Part shown: positions 1 through 35,231 of the stretch, piece after piece
How positions within the stretch are numbered: the stretch's first letter is position 1
Layout of the letters: each line of letters opens with the position of its first letter
NCBI GenBank assembly: GCA_016845525.1
Contig: JAERSQ010000222.1
Location: 1-37,819 of the forward strand
Length of the DNA stretch: 37,819 bases
Direction: 5' to 3'
From: Pseudomonadota bacterium
GTDB lineage: Bacteria > Pseudomonadota > Gammaproteobacteria > Arenicellales > UBA868
Translations under genes and position numbers: made by a program
Notes under the pieces: model-generated
What the model was told of the DNA's origin: nothing
Databases searched by the model: none
Seen by the model: the letters and a program-made list of their open reading frames with translations, nothing else

Positions 1-84
1 CATCAGGCTCTGGTTGAACTGCCGGCGGCTCATCTGGCCCGTGGCGAGTTGCTCTACAACATCTTCTTTTTTCAGCTCTTTCAT
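1..84 (-). CDS. Start of a polyamine-type ABC substrate-binding protein (truncated by window edge)
   Basis: Only the first 28 codons lie in the window; the gene continues past base 1. The ATG at 84-82 is preceded by a strong ribosome binding site, AAGGAGGA, about 6 bases upstream. The peptide begins MKELKKEDVVEQL and then shows SRRQFNQSLM, which resembles the twin-arginine export signals of some spermidine/putrescine binding proteins (PotD family). The next two genes upstream on the same strand are polyamine catabolic genes. In Pseudomonas the order spuB-spuC-spuD places a polyamine binding protein exactly here. Seen: start, ribosome binding site and signal-like N-terminus. Inferred: the function, because no mature domain is visible. 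Confidence 0.6.
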   Translation of the reverse strand, partial: MKELKKEDVVEQLATGQMSRRQFNQSLM

Positions 85-136
85 CGTTGTTCCTCCTTAA
101 GTTCTCTTATGACTACGCAGAATTCTTGCTAACCGT

Positions 137-175
137 GATCCTGATTAGAATCGTTCGGATGCTCCTATATTAGGA
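137..175. promoter_or_regulatory. Two related inverted repeats upstream of the binding-protein gene
   Basis: Positions 163-175 form a perfect inverted repeat, TCCTA-TAT-TAGGA. Positions 137-152 form an imperfect one, GATCCTGATTAGAATC, with six of eight symmetric pairs. Both contain a TCCT-(A/G)AT-TAG-like core, and their centres are about 23 bases apart, roughly two helical turns. They lie in the 169-base gap between the aminotransferase stop and the binding-protein start. A dimeric repressor or activator could bind both. The regulator is unknown and no promoter hexamers were convincing. Confidence 0.35.
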
Positions 176-253
176 TATTTCGGGCCCATAGGTGAAGCCT
201 CTCGTGGCAACCGCAATTTAGCATCGTGCGCCGACGCCGAACCCCTTATCGAC

Positions 254-1615
254 CTAGGCTCGCACCTGTTCCAGAGTTTTGTCGAGCGCCTTTCCTGCGA
301 GATCGACAAGTTCATCGATCTGATCCTTGGACATGATCAGCGGCGGGGAGATAATCATGCTGTCCCCAACCGCTCGCATCACCAGGCCCAGGTCAGCCGC
401 GATATCGCGACAGAGCGGCCCCGTGCTGCCTGAGGGCTCAAACTGGGCCCGGGTTTCCTTGTCGGCAACAATCTCAAAAGCGCCTAAAAAGCCCAGTCCG
501 CGCACCTCACCCACCAGGGGGTGATCGGCGAGTTCGGCCCAGCGTTTTTGCAGGTAAGGCCCGGTTTCGGTACGCACCCGGTCAATAATCCCTTCGTCGC
601 GCAGAATGCGAATGTTGGCAGAGGCGACTGCGCATGCAGCCGGATGACCCGCGTAAGTCATACCGTGGGTGAATTCGCCCCCTTCTTCGATGATGACTCG
701 TGATATGTGATCTGCCACCATGACGCCGCCGATGGGCAGGTATCCCGAAGAGAGTCCCTTGGCAATCGGCATGAGGTCTGGTTTCAGACCATAGTAATCG
801 CTGGCAAACCATTCGCCCGTGCGGCCGAAGCCGCAGATGACTTCATCAGCTACCAGAAGAATCTGGTGGCGCTGACAAATCGCGCTGATTTCTGGCCAGT
901 ACGTCTCGGGCGGCACAATGACGCCCCCGGCACCCTGGATGGGTTCGGCAATAAAAGCCGCGACCCGGTGCTCGCCCAATTCTTCGATTTTCTGTTCCAG
1001 TTCGCCAGCGACTTTCTTGCCAAACTCATCGGGCGACAGGTCGCCCCCTTCCCGATACCAGAAGGGTTGGCCGATGTGCACAATGTCGGGAATCGGCAGG
1101 CCGCCTTGCTCATGCATTGAGGACATGCCGCCAAGACTGGCGCCCGCCATAGTGCTGCCGTGATAGGCGTTCTTTCTGCTGATGATGACCTGCTTATCAG
1201 GATGGCCCATACACTGCCAGAAGTAACGAGCCATCCGCACAACAGTATCGTTGGACTCGGAGCCCGAATTGGTCAGAAAGACATGAGTGAGATGGTCCTG
1301 GGTAATCTCGGACAGCAGCGCGGAGAGCTCAATGACGGGGGGGTGTGCTGTCTGGAAGAAACTGTTGTAGTAGGGCAATTCCTCGATCTGTTTGCGCGCG
1401 ACTTCGGCGAGATCCTTGCGTCCGTAGCCAACATTGACGCACCACAGGCCCGCCATGCCATCGAGCATTTGATGCCCATCGGAATCCCACAGGTAGACAC
1501 CCTCAGCGCGTTCAATAATGCGGGCACCGGTTTCATGCATCCGTTTGTGATCGGTAAACGGATGCAAAAAGTGGGCGTTATCCAGCGCCTGGTATTCAGC
1601 GGTGGTAAGCGTCAT
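254..1615 (-). CDS. spuC: Class III (omega) aminotransferase, putrescine/polyamine:pyruvate type
   Basis: This 453-residue PLP enzyme belongs to aminotransferase class III. It has the cofactor-binding LVADEVICGFGRTG segment (Asp257) and the Schiff-base lysine in LMPIAKGLSSG (Lys286). The N-terminal stretch with HFLHPFTDHKRM is typical of the putrescine/beta-alanine:pyruvate subgroup. I start at the ATG at 1615, which has AAGGAG just upstream; the frame stays open 14 codons further without a better signal. The glutamylpolyamine synthetase gene lies 133 bases upstream and a polyamine-type binding protein downstream, the SpuB-SpuC-SpuD order of Pseudomonas. The likely role is deamination of putrescine or a glutamylated polyamine with pyruvate as acceptor. 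Substrate choice cannot be read from sequence; related enzymes use other omega-amino compounds. Confidence 0.85.
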   Translation of the reverse strand: MTLTTAEYQALDNAHFLHPFTDHKRMHETGARIIERAEGVYLWDSDGHQMLDGMAGLWCVNVGYGRKDLAEVARKQIEELPYYNSFFQTAHPPVIELSALLSEITQDHLTHVFLTNSGSESNDTVVRMARYFWQCMGHPDKQVIISRKNAYHGSTMAGASLGGMSSMHEQGGLPIPDIVHIGQPFWYREGGDLSPDEFGKKVAGELEQKIEELGEHRVAAFIAEPIQGAGGVIVPPETYWPEISAICQRHQILLVADEVICGFGRTGEWFASDYYGLKPDLMPIAKGLSSGYLPIGGVMVADHISRVIIEEGGEFTHGMTYAGHPAACAVASANIRILRDEGIIDRVRTETGPYLQKRWAELADHPLVGEVRGLGFLGAFEIVADKETRAQFEPSGSTGPLCRDIAADLGLVMRAVGDSMIISPPLIMSKDQIDELVDLAGKALDKTLEQVRA

Positions 1616-1748
1616 GGGATGCTCCTTGGTAACATGTTTTTCGGCTCGGCCCCGCATCTTAGAAGTCAGAGATCTGCGCCGTCAACGCGATTTGGACGCC
1701 ACAAAATACGAAAAAGGATGTGGTTTTTGAATGAGGCACAGGCCTGAT

Positions 1749-3128
1749 TTAGACATTCAGCAGGAGATGTTCGCGTTCCCAGGAACTGATCACCTGCAGG
1801 AAGGTGTCATATTCACTTTCCTTGACGGCATGCCACGCCTGAACAAAACGCGTACCCAGCATCTCCTTAAGGTCGTCAGAGTTTTCAAGCGCCTGCAGAG
1901 ACTGCTCGAGACTGCGCGGCAATTCGTACGGCATGTCATAGGCGCTCGCGGTCACAGGCGCGCTGGGGTCAAGTCTTTGCTGCATCCCGAGCAGTCCGCA
2001 GGCGAGGCTCGCGGCAATCGCCAGATAGGGGTTGGCATCCGCGCCGGGCACCCGGTTTTCAACCCGGCGTGATTCGCGACCGGAGTCCGGCACGCGAAGA
2101 CCCACCGTGCGGTTGTCCAGGCCCCATTGGACGTTAATGGGTGCCGCGTGATAGCGGATCAGGCGGCGATAGGAGTTCACATTCGGCGCGAGTAACGACA
2201 ACGAAGCCGGCAAAAAGCGTTGCAGCCCACCGATATGTGCGTAAAAAAGCGGACTGGCCTCTCCATTGGCATCACTGAAGATATTCTCCTTGGTGTCTGT
2301 GCAGACCACACTTTGATGGATGTGCATGGCGCTGCCTGGTTCTTTTTCCATGGGCTTGGCCATGAAAGAGGCATACATCTTGTGCCTGAGTGCTGTTTCA
2401 CGCACGGTCCGCTTAAATAAGAAGGCCTGATCAGCGATCGCCACAGGGTCGCCATGCAGCAGGTTAACCTCCATTTGCGCGGCCCCGGCCTCGTGGTTGA
2501 GGGTCTCCAGCGAGATGTCGAGCCCCTCGCAGTAGTCATACAGATCCTCAAACAGCGGATCAAACTCATTTACGGCATCAATCGAAAAGGATTGGCGCCC
2601 TGATTCCGCGCGCCCGGAGCGGCCGACCGGGGGCTCCAGGGGGTAATCCGCGTCAGGATTGGGTTTAATCAGGTAAAACTCCAACTCGGGCGCCACGACG
2701 GGCTCCCAACCGTGCTCCCGATAGGCGTTGACAACTTTTTGCAGCACGTAGCGCGGCGCCATTTCAACAGGACTGCCATCGGCATAGAAGCAATCATGGA
2801 TGACGAGCGCCGTGGGTTCCTGTGTCCAGGGCACCAGCCGGAAACTGTCAAGATCCGGCTTGAGGAAAATATCTTTGTCCGCAGGGTCCACTGCGCTTTG
2901 GTCTTCCGGGTATTCGCCGGTAACCGTCTGAAGGAATATCGCCTCTGGAAGGCGCATCCCAATCTCTTCGCTGTATTTATGCGCCGGGATCAGTTTCCCT
3001 CGCGCAATGCCCGTCATGTCAGGGATGACCGCTTCAATCTCGTCAATCCGGTTGTCACGCAGCCACTGCCTGATGCTGCGATCGGGAACCGCATCAGTTG
3101 TATCAATGGAATGTAATTTGTCGGACAT
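1749..3128 (-). CDS. spuB: Glutamine-synthetase family protein, probable gamma-glutamylpolyamine synthetase
   Basis: At 459 residues it has the length of the PuuA/SpuB branch of the glutamine synthetase family. Catalytic-domain landmarks are visible: ELEFYL (metal-binding glutamate region), NHEAGAAQMEVN, MHIHQS (ATP/metal histidine loop), and NRTVGLRVP followed by RRVENRVPGADANPYLA. These enzymes ligate glutamate to an amine using ATP, the first step of glutamylated polyamine breakdown. The ATG at 3128 has AGAGG upstream. The gene leads an apparent operon with the aminotransferase and the binding protein. Its pairing with a class III aminotransferase argues against a plain ammonia-assimilating GlnA, as does the absence of the conserved adenylylation-site tail. 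Whether it uses putrescine, spermidine or another monoamine is not decidable here. Confidence 0.85.
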   Translation of the reverse strand: MSDKLHSIDTTDAVPDRSIRQWLRDNRIDEIEAVIPDMTGIARGKLIPAHKYSEEIGMRLPEAIFLQTVTGEYPEDQSAVDPADKDIFLKPDLDSFRLVPWTQEPTALVIHDCFYADGSPVEMAPRYVLQKVVNAYREHGWEPVVAPELEFYLIKPNPDADYPLEPPVGRSGRAESGRQSFSIDAVNEFDPLFEDLYDYCEGLDISLETLNHEAGAAQMEVNLLHGDPVAIADQAFLFKRTVRETALRHKMYASFMAKPMEKEPGSAMHIHQSVVCTDTKENIFSDANGEASPLFYAHIGGLQRFLPASLSLLAPNVNSYRRLIRYHAAPINVQWGLDNRTVGLRVPDSGRESRRVENRVPGADANPYLAIAASLACGLLGMQQRLDPSAPVTASAYDMPYELPRSLEQSLQALENSDDLKEMLGTRFVQAWHAVKESEYDTFLQVISSWEREHLLLNV

Positions 3129-30316: not shown

Positions 30317-30446
30317 AATCTTTTCACATTCCCTTGATTGAAAGTCCAAAACCTGACCCGCACCAGGAAATGGCAAGTGGATCGGGGCCCCGGATTATTT
30401 CCATTTTGACTAGACGCTCCTGAAGTTGCGCCCTGATAAATCCCCA

Positions 30447-31811
30447 ATGAACCGCTCTGAGCGGCGCTCAGTCGGTGCGCTCGCCGGCGTCTTCAGCCTG
30501 CGCATGTTCGGCTTGTTTCTCGTGCTGCCGGTCATGGCACTGTATGCCGCCCAGATGGATGGCGCGACCCCTTTTATGATCGGGCTCGCTGTTGGGGCTT
30601 ATGGCTTGACCCAGGCGCTTTTCCAGATCGCGTTCGGCACGCTCTCGGACCGGTTTGGCCGCAAGCCCCTGATTGTTTTCGGACTGCTCGTTTTCGCGTT
30701 AGGCAGCGTCGTCGCAGCCATGGCAGATACCCTGACGGGCGTGATCATCGGCCGGGCGCTGCAGGGCAGCGGTGCGATTGCCGCTGTGGTGCTTGCGCTG
30801 GCGGCTGATCTGACCCGGGAGCAGCAGCGGGTCAAGGCCATGGCGCTGATTGGAATGAGTATCGGTGCGTCGTTTCTGCTCGCGTTGATGGCCGGCCCGG
30901 CGCTGGACCGCTGGATCGGGGTGAGCGGGATTTTTTGGCTCACGGCGGTGTTGGCTCTGGGCTGTATTGCGGTGGTTGTCTGGTGGGTGCCTACGCCACG
31001 GCACGCGGCCGGGGATCCAGGATCCAGTGCCTCGCGGGATTATTTCCGCGAGGTGATGGCCAATGCACAGCTTCTGCGGCTGGATATCGGGATTTTTACT
31101 CTGCACATGGTTTTGACGGCCGTCTTTGTAGTTGTTCCTTTTGCTTTGGTGGAAACACTGGGACTCGAGCGGGATAGCCATTGGCGGGTGTATGTTCCTG
31201 TCCTGGTGGGTTCGGTACTGCTGATGGCCCCTTTGCTCATACTGGGGATGCGACGGGAGTGGACCTTTTGGGTTTTCAGGTCGGCCATTTTTATCGTGCT
31301 CATCGGGCAGTTTGTGCTTTTCACCGGAGCCGATCAGGCGACGCTGCTGATCGCTGGCCTCATGTGCTTTTTTATCGGCTTCAATTTGCTGGAAGCGATG
31401 TTGCCATCGCTGATGACCCGTCTTGCCCCGGGGTACGCGAAGGGCACCGCGATCGGGATCTACAACACCTTCGAATTTGCGGGCGTTTTTGTGGGTGGTG
31501 CATTAGGCGGTATCCTGCTGGGTCTGTTCGGTAGTTCGGGGGTATTCGCCTTCTGCGTTCTGGCGACGCTGGCGTGGCTGGTGGTGGCATTGACCGGGAG
31601 AGCCCCGCAACTGAGAAACAGCGTCACCTTGCGGCTGGATGGCGAAATCGACCTTGCCTCCGGCTCGATTGAGCACAGTCTGGGCGCACTTAACGGAGTA
31701 GACGAAGTGACCGTGCTGCCAAAGGATCGCGTTGCCTACCTGCGCGTGGATGAAAGCTGTTTCGACCCAGAGCAGGCCCACGCTGTGCCGGGCGTATTGG
31801 CACCTGATTGA
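30447..31811 (+). CDS. MFS transporter (YajR-like) with C-terminal domain
   Basis: This 454-residue major facilitator has about 12 hydrophobic helices. The family motif between helices 2 and 3 is clear ([17 protein letters not shown]), as are [18 protein letters not shown] in helix 1 and [20 protein letters not shown]. After the last helix about 70 residues remain ([24 protein letters not shown], then [13 protein letters not shown]), resembling the soluble ferredoxin-like domain of YajR-type transporters. The gene sits between uvrA and ssb as in Pseudomonas. I use ATG 30447; a TTG at 30426 would add seven residues. The substrate is unknown. The last residues before the stop at 31811 directly abut a truncated ABC ATPase gene on the other strand. 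Confidence 0.87.
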
Positions 31812-31992
31812 CTTGTCCGGCGATCAGCCTAAGCAGGGTGGTTTTGCCGCAACCGGACGGGCCGAGCAGAGTAAAGAATTCATTCTGCGCGATGGATACC
31901 GAGACATCGTTGAGCGCAGTGACTTGCTGCTCGGTTCCAGAGCCAAAAATCTTTGAAACATTGCGCACGTGAATCGAGACTGTGACGCTCAT
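31812..31992 (-). pseudogene. Truncated polyamine-type ABC transporter ATPase (5' remnant)
   Basis: An ATG at 31992 with a strong ribosome binding site (GGAGGAGA, 3-5 bases upstream) opens a frame of 59 codons that clearly encodes the N-terminus of a PotA/PotG-family ATPase: [42 protein letters not shown], then IAG. Walker A is intact. Homology stops there, where FE-P-G should follow, and the frame runs on antisense into the MFS gene to 31690 with meaningless sequence. Q-loop, signature, Walker B and transport-accessory domain are all missing, so it cannot work as an ATPase. The boundary lies within five bases of the MFS stop codon. It looks like the residue of a deletion or rearrangement, or an assembly join. 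Confidence 0.85.
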
Positions 31993-32212
31993 TCTCTCCT
32001 CCAGTCCCGACTCTTTAGCACGCGGGCTCATGACTTGTTTTTCTGTGATGCTTATAGCCAATGGGCAAATGCCCGTCAATAGAATGTGGAACACCGCTGG
32101 GCAACGCCCAACTATGAAGTGCTGGTTTGCCGAAGAACAGATGTATACTCATTTGCAGGGATTCTTGACCGCAGACTGGCTAAAAATGAGCGTCAAAATC
32201 TGAAAGGAGTGG
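31993..32212. other. Spacer between the ATPase remnant and the ssb promoter
   Basis: These 220 bases presumably include the old promoter of the truncated ATPase gene on the minus strand and unrelated sequence before ssb. A TATACT hexamer at 32144-32149 lacks a matching -35. I found no LexA box, terminator or credible small gene here. Confidence 0.5.
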
Positions 32213-32240
32213 ATGACATTCGCTTGGTCAGCGGTATACT
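32213..32240 (+). promoter_or_regulatory. Candidate ssb promoter
   Basis: ATGACA (32213-32218, five of six matching TTGACA) and TATACT (32235-32240) are 16 bases apart, placing a start near 32247 and a leader of about 47 bases before ssb. The same ATG could begin a 19-codon frame ending at 32272 with AAAGGAG just before it; promoter and frame cannot both be used from this transcript. Confidence 0.5.
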
Positions 32241-32293
32241 GCCTTGATGAGAGATTGGTGATTAAATCGTAAACGGAAAAGGAATATTGGCTG

Positions 32294-32734
32294 ATGGCTG
32301 GAGTAAATAAAGCAATCATTGTAGGAAATTTGGGTAACGATCCAGAGATTCGTTATTCGGCGAATGGCAATGCGATCGCGAGTATTTCGGTGGCAACGTC
32401 GGACCGGTGGAAAGATAAAAATACTGGCGAGCAACAGGAACGAACGGAATGGCACCGAGTTAAGTTATTCGGCCGTCTGGCCGAACTCGCCGGTGAGTAT
32501 CTAAAAAAGGGATCCCAGGTCTATATTGAGGGAAGAATTCAAACCTCAAAATATCAGGATAAGGATGGCAATGATCGTTGGTCCACGGAGATTGTTGCGA
32601 GAGAAATGACATTTCTAGGTGGCCGCGGTGGCGGAGGTGATGCGCAGGGTGGTTCTGGTTCGGCCCCGGAATTTGCTGAGGGGAATTCCGGCGGGGGATC
32701 CTCCGGGGACTTTGACGACGATATTCCGTTCTAG
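32294..32734 (+). CDS. ssb: Single-stranded DNA-binding protein
   Basis: This 146-residue SSB has the OB-fold N-terminus ([17 protein letters not shown], then [20 protein letters not shown] and [20 protein letters not shown]). A short Gly/Ser-rich linker follows, then the acidic tip DFDDDIPF, which recruits replication and repair proteins. It is shorter than E. coli SSB (178) because the linker is short. AAAGGAA precedes the ATG by about 10 bases. By eye the first half is more A/T-rich than its neighbours, which may reflect expression-related codon use. It belongs to the conserved uvrA-MFS-ssb neighbourhood, here interrupted by the ATPase remnant. Confidence 0.96.
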
Positions 32735-32817: not shown

Positions 32818-33561
32818 TCAATCAGCACCACTTTGGTAGCGTACTTTGCCTTCCAACATATAACCGGCGCCGCGAACTGTCCTGATCAACTCCCTGCCAT
32901 CACCCTGGTCCGACGAGAGGTGACGCCGCAGGTGACCGATGCGAACGTCAATCGTACGATCAAAGGGCATGGTAGATCGGCCCCGCGTCGCCCGCAGCAG
33001 AAAGTCACGATTCAGCACCGTATTGGGGTTTTCTGCCAGCACCCGCAAGAGGTCAAATTCTGCGGTAGAAAGAGGAATTGTCCTCTCATCCGCACCGCGA
33101 AGTTTGCGTTGGCTGATATCAAGTTCCCAGCCCGAAAAACACAGTACGCCGTGATGGGCCGTCCTGGCAGTTCTTCCCTCTTCAGTCCGGCGTAGCAGAG
33201 CCTGCACCCGGGCCAGTAGTTCACGCAGATCGAAAGGCTTGGTCAGGTAATCATCCGCCCCGCTGGCAAGGCCTGTAACCCGATCGACAACTTCTTTTTT
33301 CGACGTCAGCATGATGATCGGTATCCGGCTCGTGCTGCGCAATTGCCGGGTCAGTGAAACACCGTCATCACCGGGCAGGCGGATATCCATGATCACAAGA
33401 TCGGGTAGTTGTCTGTTGAGAACGTCCTGCATGTCGGCCCCATTCCCGACACCAATGACATCAAATCCCTCCCGGCCCAGATAGCGTTGAACAAGATTGC
33501 GGATCTCCGGCTCATCGTCAATGATGAGGATGAGTTTTCGTTCAGGATGGGAGGCGCTCAA
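32818..33561 (-). CDS. OmpR/PhoB-family response regulator
   Basis: The protein has 247 residues. The receiver domain (residues about 10-125) has the acidic pair Asp15-Asp16, phosphoacceptor Asp59 in IMDIRLPG, Thr86 and Lys108 in LTKPFD. The DNA-binding winged helix (about 143-238) shows LSTAEFDLLRVLAENPNTVL, DRTIDVRIGHLRRHL and IRTVRGAGYML, typical of OmpR/PhoB. The start is a TTG at 33561 overlapping the upstream kinase stop as TTGA; no other start precedes the receiver. It is surely paired with that kinase. Its target is probably the divergent acyl-CoA synthetase and ABC genes, an inference from position. Confidence 0.92.
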   Translation of the reverse strand: MSASHPERKLILIIDDEPEIRNLVQRYLGREGFDVIGVGNGADMQDVLNRQLPDLVIMDIRLPGDDGVSLTRQLRSTSRIPIIMLTSKKEVVDRVTGLASGADDYLTKPFDLRELLARVQALLRRTEEGRTARTAHHGVLCFSGWELDISQRKLRGADERTIPLSTAEFDLLRVLAENPNTVLNRDFLLRATRGRSTMPFDRTIDVRIGHLRRHLSSDQGDGRELIRTVRGAGYMLEGKVRYQSGAD

Positions 33562-35231
33562 GCTCGGTTGCCCCGCAGTCTTTCCGTTCCCGATGAATTC
33601 AGAATCTGGTACACGGCGTTTCCCAGTTGTCGAGCTGAAAAAGGCTTGGCCAGTGTCGCCGACTGCCCGTTGCGGCGATTGATCATGTCGCTGCTCTGGC
33701 CGGAGATGCAGAGTGTCTGAATACAGGGATGGATCCTTTTAAGTTGACGGCAGAGGCTCTCGCCATCGATACCGCCAGGCATCAGCAGGTCGGTGAGTAG
33801 CAGATCGATATGTTGGTACCGTTCAGCAAGTTCCTGTGCCTGCTGGCCGCCCGATGCGTTGAGTGTCTGATAGCCAAGATCATGAAGCACCCGACAAATG
33901 AATCCGCGGACATTCTGATCGTTTTCGACCACCAGTATCCGCTCTCCATGACCCTTGGGAGCATCGCGTAGCCTGGCTTCACACGGCTCGTTTTGGCTGC
34001 CGGTGGCGCGAGGGAGGTAGAGTTCCACCCGGGTTCCGACACCTTTTTTGCTGGTGATGTGTGCCTGCCCGCCGGATTGGCGGACGAAACCGTACACGGT
34101 GCTCAGACCGAGTCCGGTACCAGTTCCTACTCCCTTGGTAGTGAAAAACGGCTCGAAAGCCCGCTCCATCACAGAAGATGACATGCCTTCACCGTTATCC
34201 TCTATGCTGTACATGACGAAATCGCCCGGACCGAGAGTAATTCGTTCATCGTAGCGTTCCAGCGAAACATTGGCGGCACTGATAACGAGTTCACCGCCAT
34301 GTGGCATTGCATCCCGTGCGTTCAAGGCCAGATTGACGATGGCGTTCTCCAGTCGTACGGGATCTGCCTGCGCGGACCAGGTGTTTGTCCCCGAGTCTAT
34401 ATCCACCTCGATTGTCTCGCTAAGGGTGCGCTTCAGCATGGCATCGATATCCGCGAACAGGCGGATTGAATGGACGGCAGCGGGACTCAAATTCTGATGG
34501 CTCGAAAAGTCCAGCAGCTGTCGTGTCAGTTCAGCCCCGCGCCGCGAGGCGCCTGCGGCAGCCTGCAGCGACTCGCGGGTAGCCATATCAGGCCTGGGAG
34601 AATCACCAATCAGGTCCAGATTGCCCTGGATAATGGTCAACAGGTTGTTGAAGTCGTGTGCGATACCGCTGGTCAACTGACCGAGGGCATTCAGTTTTTG
34701 TGATTCCAGCAGCGCTGCCTGCGCATTCTTGTGCTGGGCAATCTCCTCGCGAAGGGCAGCGTTGGTTTGATGCAGTTCAGTGGTACGTTCGACGACGCGC
34801 TGCTCAAGCAGATCGTGACTGTTCTGCAGCGCCTGTTCCGCACGCTTGCGGTTGGTGATATCGGTGTAGATGGTAACAAATCCTCCACTCCTGAGTGGTG
34901 TCCCGTGGACCTCCAGCACCTGCCCATTGGGCCGGGTTCGTTCAAAATGGTGCGGCAGGAACTGGCGGGCAAGCGCCATGCGCTGCTGCACCTGCTGATC
35001 CGGGTCCCCGGGTCCGTAATCTCCTCGCCGGGCGTTATACGCAAAAAGGGTCTCGAGGGGGGTGCCGATCCGGGCGAATTCCTCAGGAAATTCAAGCATT
35101 TGGGTAAAGTACCGGTTCCAGCTGACCAGGCATAGCGATTGATCAAAGACAGAGATGCCCTGGTCAAGATGATCCAGGGCATCCAGGGTGAGAACGGCCC
35201 TGGTCAGCAGGCTATCGTAGTCTGATCCCAT
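33558..35231 (-). CDS. Hybrid sensor histidine kinase with PAS and receiver domains
   Basis: The protein has 557 residues and no transmembrane helices, so it is a cytoplasmic sensor. A PAS domain spans about 18-130 (DQGISVFDQSLCLVSWNRYF through FVTIYTDITNRKRAE), then a coiled-coil (about 130-180). The dimerisation/phosphoacceptor domain has His192 in GIAHDFNNLL. The ATPase domain has NLALNARDAMP, DNGEGM (345-350) and GTGTGLGLS (369-377). A C-terminal receiver has acidic cluster Glu436/Asp438, Asp481 in LLTDLLMPGG and Lys529. Its coding end overlaps the response-regulator start. The HDFNN-type kinase with fused receiver suggests a phosphorelay. The PAS ligand is unknown; the divergent fatty-acid-type ligase suggests an organic acid or its CoA ester. 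Confidence 0.92.
   Translation of the reverse strand: MGSDYDSLLTRAVLTLDALDHLDQGISVFDQSLCLVSWNRYFTQMLEFPEEFARIGTPLETLFAYNARRGDYGPGDPDQQVQQRMALARQFLPHHFERTRPNGQVLEVHGTPLRSGGFVTIYTDITNRKRAEQALQNSHDLLEQRVVERTTELHQTNAALREEIAQHKNAQAALLESQKLNALGQLTSGIAHDFNNLLTIIQGNLDLIGDSPRPDMATRESLQAAAGASRRGAELTRQLLDFSSHQNLSPAAVHSIRLFADIDAMLKRTLSETIEVDIDSGTNTWSAQADPVRLENAIVNLALNARDAMPHGGELVISAANVSLERYDERITLGPGDFVMYSIEDNGEGMSSSVMERAFEPFFTTKGVGTGTGLGLSTVYGFVRQSGGQAHITSKKGVGTRVELYLPRATGSQNEPCEARLRDAPKGHGERILVVENDQNVRGFICRVLHDLGYQTLNASGGQQAQELAERYQHIDLLLTDLLMPGGIDGESLCRQLKRIHPCIQTLCISGQSSDMINRRNGQSATLAKPFSARQLGNAVYQILNSSGTERLRGNRA

What the first reader, a model, noticed from the sequence alone, without database searches (positions are those of the whole stretch)
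31690..31995. Remnant of a polyamine ABC ATPase gene abutting the MFS stop codon
Seen: an ATG with an excellent ribosome binding site and 59 codons of clear PotA-type ATPase, cut right after LLRLIAG, within five bases of the MFS stop on the other strand. Inference: a deletion or inversion joined the two, possibly from a pot/spu operon once located between MFS and ssb. The polyamine unit at 1-3128 may be related. If transcribed, it makes a dead peptide and antisense RNA to the MFS 3' end. An assembly chimera must be excluded.
Basis: partly seen in the sequence, partly recalled or inferred. Interest (0 to 1): 0.6.

Follow-up and report, generated by a model that had tools for sequence, protein, structure and literature searches.

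The report
Leftover stub of a deleted operon
The first 59 codons of a transporter ATPase gene are what is left here of a seven-gene transport-and-hydrolysis operon that sister species carry at this exact spot, so this is an ordinary but well-documented case of bacterial gene loss.

Summary
Window 31816-31992 (-) encodes 59 codons of a PotA-type ABC ATPase, cut after LLRLIAG, with a ribosome binding site, five bases from the MFS stop. In 14 of 14 evaluable other genomes the MFS 3' end abuts that second hydrolase; in the window it abuts the ATPase. The junction lies in a 13-nt word (CCGGCGATCAGCC) that relatives carry imperfectly at both ends of the missing segment (9-11 of 13 matches), as expected of a deletion of about 7.65-7.70 kb between short direct repeats. 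Synonymous divergence from sister G002 is alike on both sides (MFS 0.56, stub 0.60), and searches of the bin found no other copy of the missing transporter genes. An assembly chimera is unlikely, but only reads can exclude it. Two other genus members carry ATPase stubs with other breakpoints: G010 (about 71 codons, enzymes kept) and G018 (38 codons, contig ends at the first hydrolase gene). A promoter-like site remains; antisense transcription into MFS is untested. Most likely the stub has no function.

The parts
31816..31992 (-). 5' stub of a PotA-type ABC ATPase gene, 59 codons
   Evidence: 55 of 59 residues identical to the G002 ATPase
31690..31992 (-). 100-aa open frame: 59 ATPase codons plus 41 codons antisense to the MFS 3' end
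   Evidence: open frame 31690..32094 -, read from ATG 31992
31817..31829 (.). deletion junction: word CCGGCGATCAGCC, found imperfectly at both ends of the missing segment in relatives
31994..32002 (-). ribosome binding site of the stub, GGAGGAGAG
   Evidence: the G002 ATPase has GGAGGAGAAA at this place
32051..32079 (-). promoter-like site TTGACG-N17-TATAAG of the former operon
   Evidence: a site of this kind in 5 of 7 loci upstream of the ATPase; only match of nearly the same pattern in the window
30426..31811 (+). MFS transporter gene, whole, ending at the same residue as in sister genomes
32294..32734 (+). ssb, divergent neighbour of the stub

Best explanation
The stub is a truncated pseudogene left by one deletion of about 7.65-7.70 kb (size taken from two relatives) between two short imperfect direct repeats, one just behind the MFS stop codon and one inside the ATPase gene at codons 55-59. 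The deletion removed the last 84% of the ATPase, both permeases, the binding protein, both NylB-like hydrolases and the amidase, and spared the operon's promoter-like site, the stub's start and the divergent ssb. Shown: the stub, the intact operon at the same place in relatives, the repeat at both ends in relatives, concordant divergence on both sides. Inferred: a single step, loss by replication slippage or another short-homology event that does not need long homology, and absence of function now.
For: Operon at this place in relatives: complete between MFS and ssb on one contig in G015 and G004 (L045, L103), in parts in others. MFS followed by the second hydrolase in 14 of 14 other genus genomes where the stretch is held, plus contig C33 of this bin. 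Junction word: 9-11 of 13 positions match between the MFS-downstream sequence of five loci (four genomes and C33) and the G002 ATPase at the register fixed by the window; only 1 to 5 of 2362 registers along the G002 stretch do as well, the true one included. dS window versus G002: MFS 0.56, stub 0.60, fadD 0.68. Bin searches found no binding protein, permease or close intact ATPase of this operon. dN/dS of the stub against G002 about 0.08: most divergence predates the loss.
Against: One assembly, one contig of a metagenome bin (88% complete, 7.4% contaminated); no reads. None of the other 19 genus genomes shows the same junction. The repeat is imperfect in the five relatives' loci examined, so its form in the ancestor is inferred; the longest exact word shared there is only 7 nt. 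The bin holds a second strain's copy of part of the locus (C33, 96.5% identical to the G002 MFS), so strains are mixed in it. The ssb stretch beside the stub is mosaic.
Confidence: 0.86

Rival explanations
1. Assembly chimera: the living organism has the intact operon and the assembler skipped it.
For: Mixed-strain bin: C33 carries the MFS-hydrolase-amidase order from a strain close to G002. A short word is shared by both ends. ssb beside it tracks another lineage.
Against: The shared word is at most 13 nt, and the longest exact word shared between the five MFS-downstream stretches and the ATPase region is 7 nt, below usual assembly word sizes of 21 or more (recalled). Searches of the bin found no own-lineage copy of the missing genes, though at 88% completeness this alone is weak. 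Divergence of MFS, stub and fadD from the sister clade is concordant.
Confidence: 0.09
2. Two-step loss: first the transporter part was excised, as in G010, then the hydrolase-amidase part.
For: G010 shows exactly such a first step, and G018 probably does: ATPase stubs joined just upstream of the first hydrolase gene.
Against: Breakpoints differ (codons about 71 and 38 against 59), and the window's sister G002 has an intact ATPase, so the G010 and G018 events are not ancestral to the window. One step explains the repeat at both ends.
Confidence: 0.12
3. The stub is kept for a function: a 100-aa peptide, or an antisense RNA that tunes MFS.
For: Promoter-like site, ribosome binding site and start are kept; the stub still reads clean, Walker A included.
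Against: No Walker B, signature or permease partner is left; low dN/dS is explained by time before the loss; window-lineage changes in the stub are 3 replacement and 5 silent by parsimony, too few to show constraint; the G010 stub has an altered Walker A.
Confidence: 0.05

Closest known systems
PotA-type polyamine ABC ATPase (TIGR01187 potA subfamily)
   Same: The intact ATPase of relative G002 passes the TIGR01187 cutoff (387.9 against 355.6 bits) and has TOBE_2
   Different: The window holds 59 of 364 codons; the G002 ATPase stays under the PotA equivalog cutoff NF006987 (402.1 against 482 bits)
Deletions between short direct repeats (illegitimate recombination), recalled
   Same: One copy of the repeat remains at the junction, the segment between is gone
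   Different: The repeat is imperfect in the relatives examined; mechanism not tested
NylB 6-aminohexanoate-dimer hydrolase and NylA-type amidases
   Same: Both hydrolases of the operon in G016 match NylB-type structures over most of their length (E 3e-60 and 3e-47); the amidase matches aryl acylamidase best (E 4e-52) and also NylA (E 7e-35)
   Different: These genes are absent from the window; their substrate is unknown

Membership tests
PotA-type ABC ATPase | Walker A and PotA-type N-terminus | tested here: met
   GPSGCGKTT present; PotA among the best three models over the N-terminal 50 positions; 55 of 59 identical to a potA-subfamily ATPase
PotA-type ABC ATPase | Complete nucleotide-binding domain (Walker B, signature) and TOBE domain | tested here: not met
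   59 codons only, ABC_tran 1-33 of 137
PotA-type ABC ATPase | Permeases and binding protein alongside | tested here: not met
   Gone from the window and not found in the bin; present in relatives
Truncated pseudogene by deletion | Intact orthologue at the same place in relatives | tested here: met
   Of 20 genus genomes, 11 hold the stretch beside ssb: ATPase intact in 8, stubs in 3, the window included
Truncated pseudogene by deletion | Other side of the junction matches the far flank of the missing segment | tested here: met
   MFS 3' end, and the five bases between its stop and the word as in the five sister loci
Deletion between short direct repeats | Repeat at both ends of the missing segment, one copy left | tested here: met
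   9-11 of 13 matches at fixed register in five loci; imperfect
Deletion between short direct repeats | Junction present in the cell, not made by assembly | not testable with these tools
   No reads available

The most novel reading that the evidence does not exclude
The place between MFS and ssb in this genus is a repeated deletion site where the 5' part of the ATPase is spared each time because the promoter and first codons still do something, for instance serve as a leader for the hydrolase genes (G010, perhaps G018) or shape ssb or MFS expression (window).
Probability: 0.08. Interest if true: 0.45.

Novelty: new member of a known kind. Interest (0 to 1): 0.24.

Why it matters
It is a clean example of how a bacterium sheds a whole transport-and-hydrolysis operon, apparently in one short-repeat deletion, beside sister species that keep the operon and two others that lost at least its transporter part. 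It also points to an operon with no assigned substrate (polyamine-type ABC uptake with two NylB-like hydrolases and an amidase), whose binding protein was found only in this genus among 33 family genomes searched.

Tried and rejected
Inversion: rejected, because MFS and ATPase keep the relative orientation seen in relatives. Link with the polyamine genes at 1-3128: not tested. Missing 3' part of the ATPase elsewhere in the bin: not found; the 36 other protein matches to the stub in the bin (best by E-value 65% identical, one 67% over 47 residues) look like other ABC ATPases. A plasmid search with the stub protein gave 3779 records, the best listed 68-70% identical: ordinary ABC ATPases, of no further use. 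Standard promoter scan: one site, on the + strand at 32213-32240, none on the - strand, because it demands T at the last place of the -10 box; the TTGACG-N17-TATAAG site was first seen by eye and then looked for in relatives, so its choice was post hoc. The exact hexamers are in window, G002 and G014; G010 and G015 have variants; G003 and G017 have no match. The search for other copies in the window used a slightly narrower -10 box. Terminator scan: none.

Mended on checking: the MFS-side count is now 14 of 14, after G017 was fetched and read; before, it was 13 of 13. My note placed the G010 break 14 nt from the window's on the wrong side (alignment shows homology to about codon 71), and wrote the MFS-downstream word of relatives as a blend of two genomes. 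In one search the G010 row was read one base out of frame, so its dN/dS there is void and not used.

Full report
What is there. The window is contig C222 of a metagenome bin (268 contigs, 88% complete, 7.4% contaminated). On the - strand, ATG 31992 opens 59 codons of a PotA-type ATPase N-terminus ending in LLRLIAG, after a good ribosome binding site. The frame runs on for 41 codons across the MFS 3' end to 31690. The MFS gene itself is whole and ends at the same residue as in its closest relatives.

What relatives have. A DNA search of 61 genomes (49 with some match) and a gene map of the stretches fetched show that in this genus the MFS-ssb interval holds seven genes read away from ssb and towards MFS: ATPase (364 aa), PotB-like and PotC-like permeases, PotD/F-like binding protein, a beta-lactamase-fold hydrolase (395 aa), an amidase (478 aa) and a second such hydrolase (415 aa). 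A relative of the binding protein at E 1e-60 or better was found in 13 of 33 family genomes, all 13 in the one genus of six; of these, G015 and G007 are 55% identical and G018 has only a distant one (39%).

MFS side, 19 other genus genomes: 14 hold the stretch behind MFS (G002, G003, G004, G006, G007, G008, G009, G010, G011, G013, G015, G016, G017, G019) and in all 14 the second hydrolase follows; so it does in C33 of this bin. In G009 that hydrolase is matched in two pieces and may be broken. Not evaluable: G014 (contig ends 78 nt behind MFS) and G001, G005, G012, G018 (no MFS 3' end found). ssb side, 20 genus genomes: 11 hold the stretch; ATPase whole in 8 (G002, G003, G004, G006, G007, G014, G015, G017), stub in 3 (window, G010, G018). 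In the other 9 a contig ends there (G008, G019) or searches found no such stretch (G001, G005, G009, G011, G012, G013, G016).

How it arose. Behind the MFS stop, sister genomes read five bases and then words such as CCGGCAATCAGTC (G002) or TCCGCAATCAGCC (G019); the G002 ATPase at codons 55-59 reads CCGGCGATCAGCC on the same strand; the window reads CCGGCGATCAGCC five bases behind its stop. At the register that the window fixes, 9 (G016), 10 (G011, G019, C33) and 11 (G002) of 13 positions match; 1 to 5 of 2362 registers along the G002 ATPase-permease stretch, the true one included, do as well. The distance between the two copies is 7697 nt in G015 and 7645 nt in G004. A single deletion between short repeats is the simplest account; the enzymatic route is inferred.

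Is it real. Synonymous divergence of the window from the sister group is 0.70-0.73 for uvrA (G011, G016, G019), 0.47-0.57 for MFS (G002, G011, G016, G019, C33), 0.60 for the stub (G002), 0.53-0.68 for fadD (G019, G002), and from G014 1.25-2.0 for the same four genes. So both sides of the junction behave as one lineage. ssb does not: it is closer to G014 (dS 0.36), see below. The only other piece of the locus found in the bin, C33, is 96.5% identical to the G002 MFS but 85.7% to the window's: a second strain. Searches found no own-lineage copy of the missing genes in the bin (by DNA; 26, 29 by protein), although at 88% completeness absence alone is weak. Against an assembly join: the word is 13 nt, and the longest exact word shared in the five sister loci is 7 nt. 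I put the chimera at about 0.09.

When. The stub differs from G002 by dS 0.60 and dN 0.047, so it evolved under constraint for most of that time. By parsimony the window branch has 3 replacement and 5 silent changes, the G002 branch 3 and 10, with 4 silent unplaced: too few to date the loss, but it is probably recent against the species split. The G010 stub has an altered Walker A (GCDKT).

What it does now. Probably nothing. A promoter-like TTGACG-N17-TATAAG at 32079-32051 is kept; a site of that kind lies upstream of the ATPase in 5 of 7 loci, so transcription into the MFS 3' end in antisense is plausible and untested.

Repeated loss. G010 keeps about 71 ATPase codons joined just upstream of the first hydrolase gene and keeps all three enzyme genes. 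G018 keeps 38 codons (61% identical to G002) joined to the same intergenic region (its first 123 bases match the binding-protein/hydrolase gap of G007 at 86%); its contig begins there, so the fate of its enzymes is not known. The three breakpoints differ, so these look like separate events. That stubs persist may only mean that deletions reaching into ssb control are not tolerated (inference).

Noticed in passing
window 32177-32596: The start of ssb and its upstream stretch are 90-98% identical to G014 in 60-base steps, while stub, MFS, uvrA and fadD side with the G002 group; G002 and G019 carry an ssb of another type (about 67% aa identity) at the same place. Looks like allelic exchange of ssb, or a second place to check for a chimera.
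   Followed up: partly
window 32818-35231: A response regulator and histidine kinase pair sits between ssb and fadD in the window; the regulator is also found beside ssb in G015, G004 and G006 (weak pieces in G007, G018), and no match lies in the ssb-fadD gap of G002, G014, G010, G017, G019.
   Followed up: no
L043 5529-5741 (G010) and L110 1-244 (G018): Two further ATPase 5' stubs beside ssb with different breakpoints, from deletions that took away the transporter genes there.
   Followed up: yes
L049 7595-13776 and L046 7595-9968: Operon of PotABCD-like uptake genes, two NylB-like hydrolases (SxxK motifs SVTK, SMAK) and an amidase (GGSSG motif); possible uptake and cleavage of amides or oligoamides.
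   Followed up: partly
G000:C33 (L051): Contig of a second strain close to G002 inside this bin: evidence of bin contamination.
   Followed up: yes
L102 680-1613 (G009): The second hydrolase gene is matched in two pieces in G009, perhaps a frameshifted or decaying copy.
   Followed up: no
L104 and L107 (G007): The G007 bin holds two versions of the operon's ATPase (65% and 77% identical to G002), one on a contig with MFS, the other beside ssb: mixed strains or two copies.
   Followed up: no
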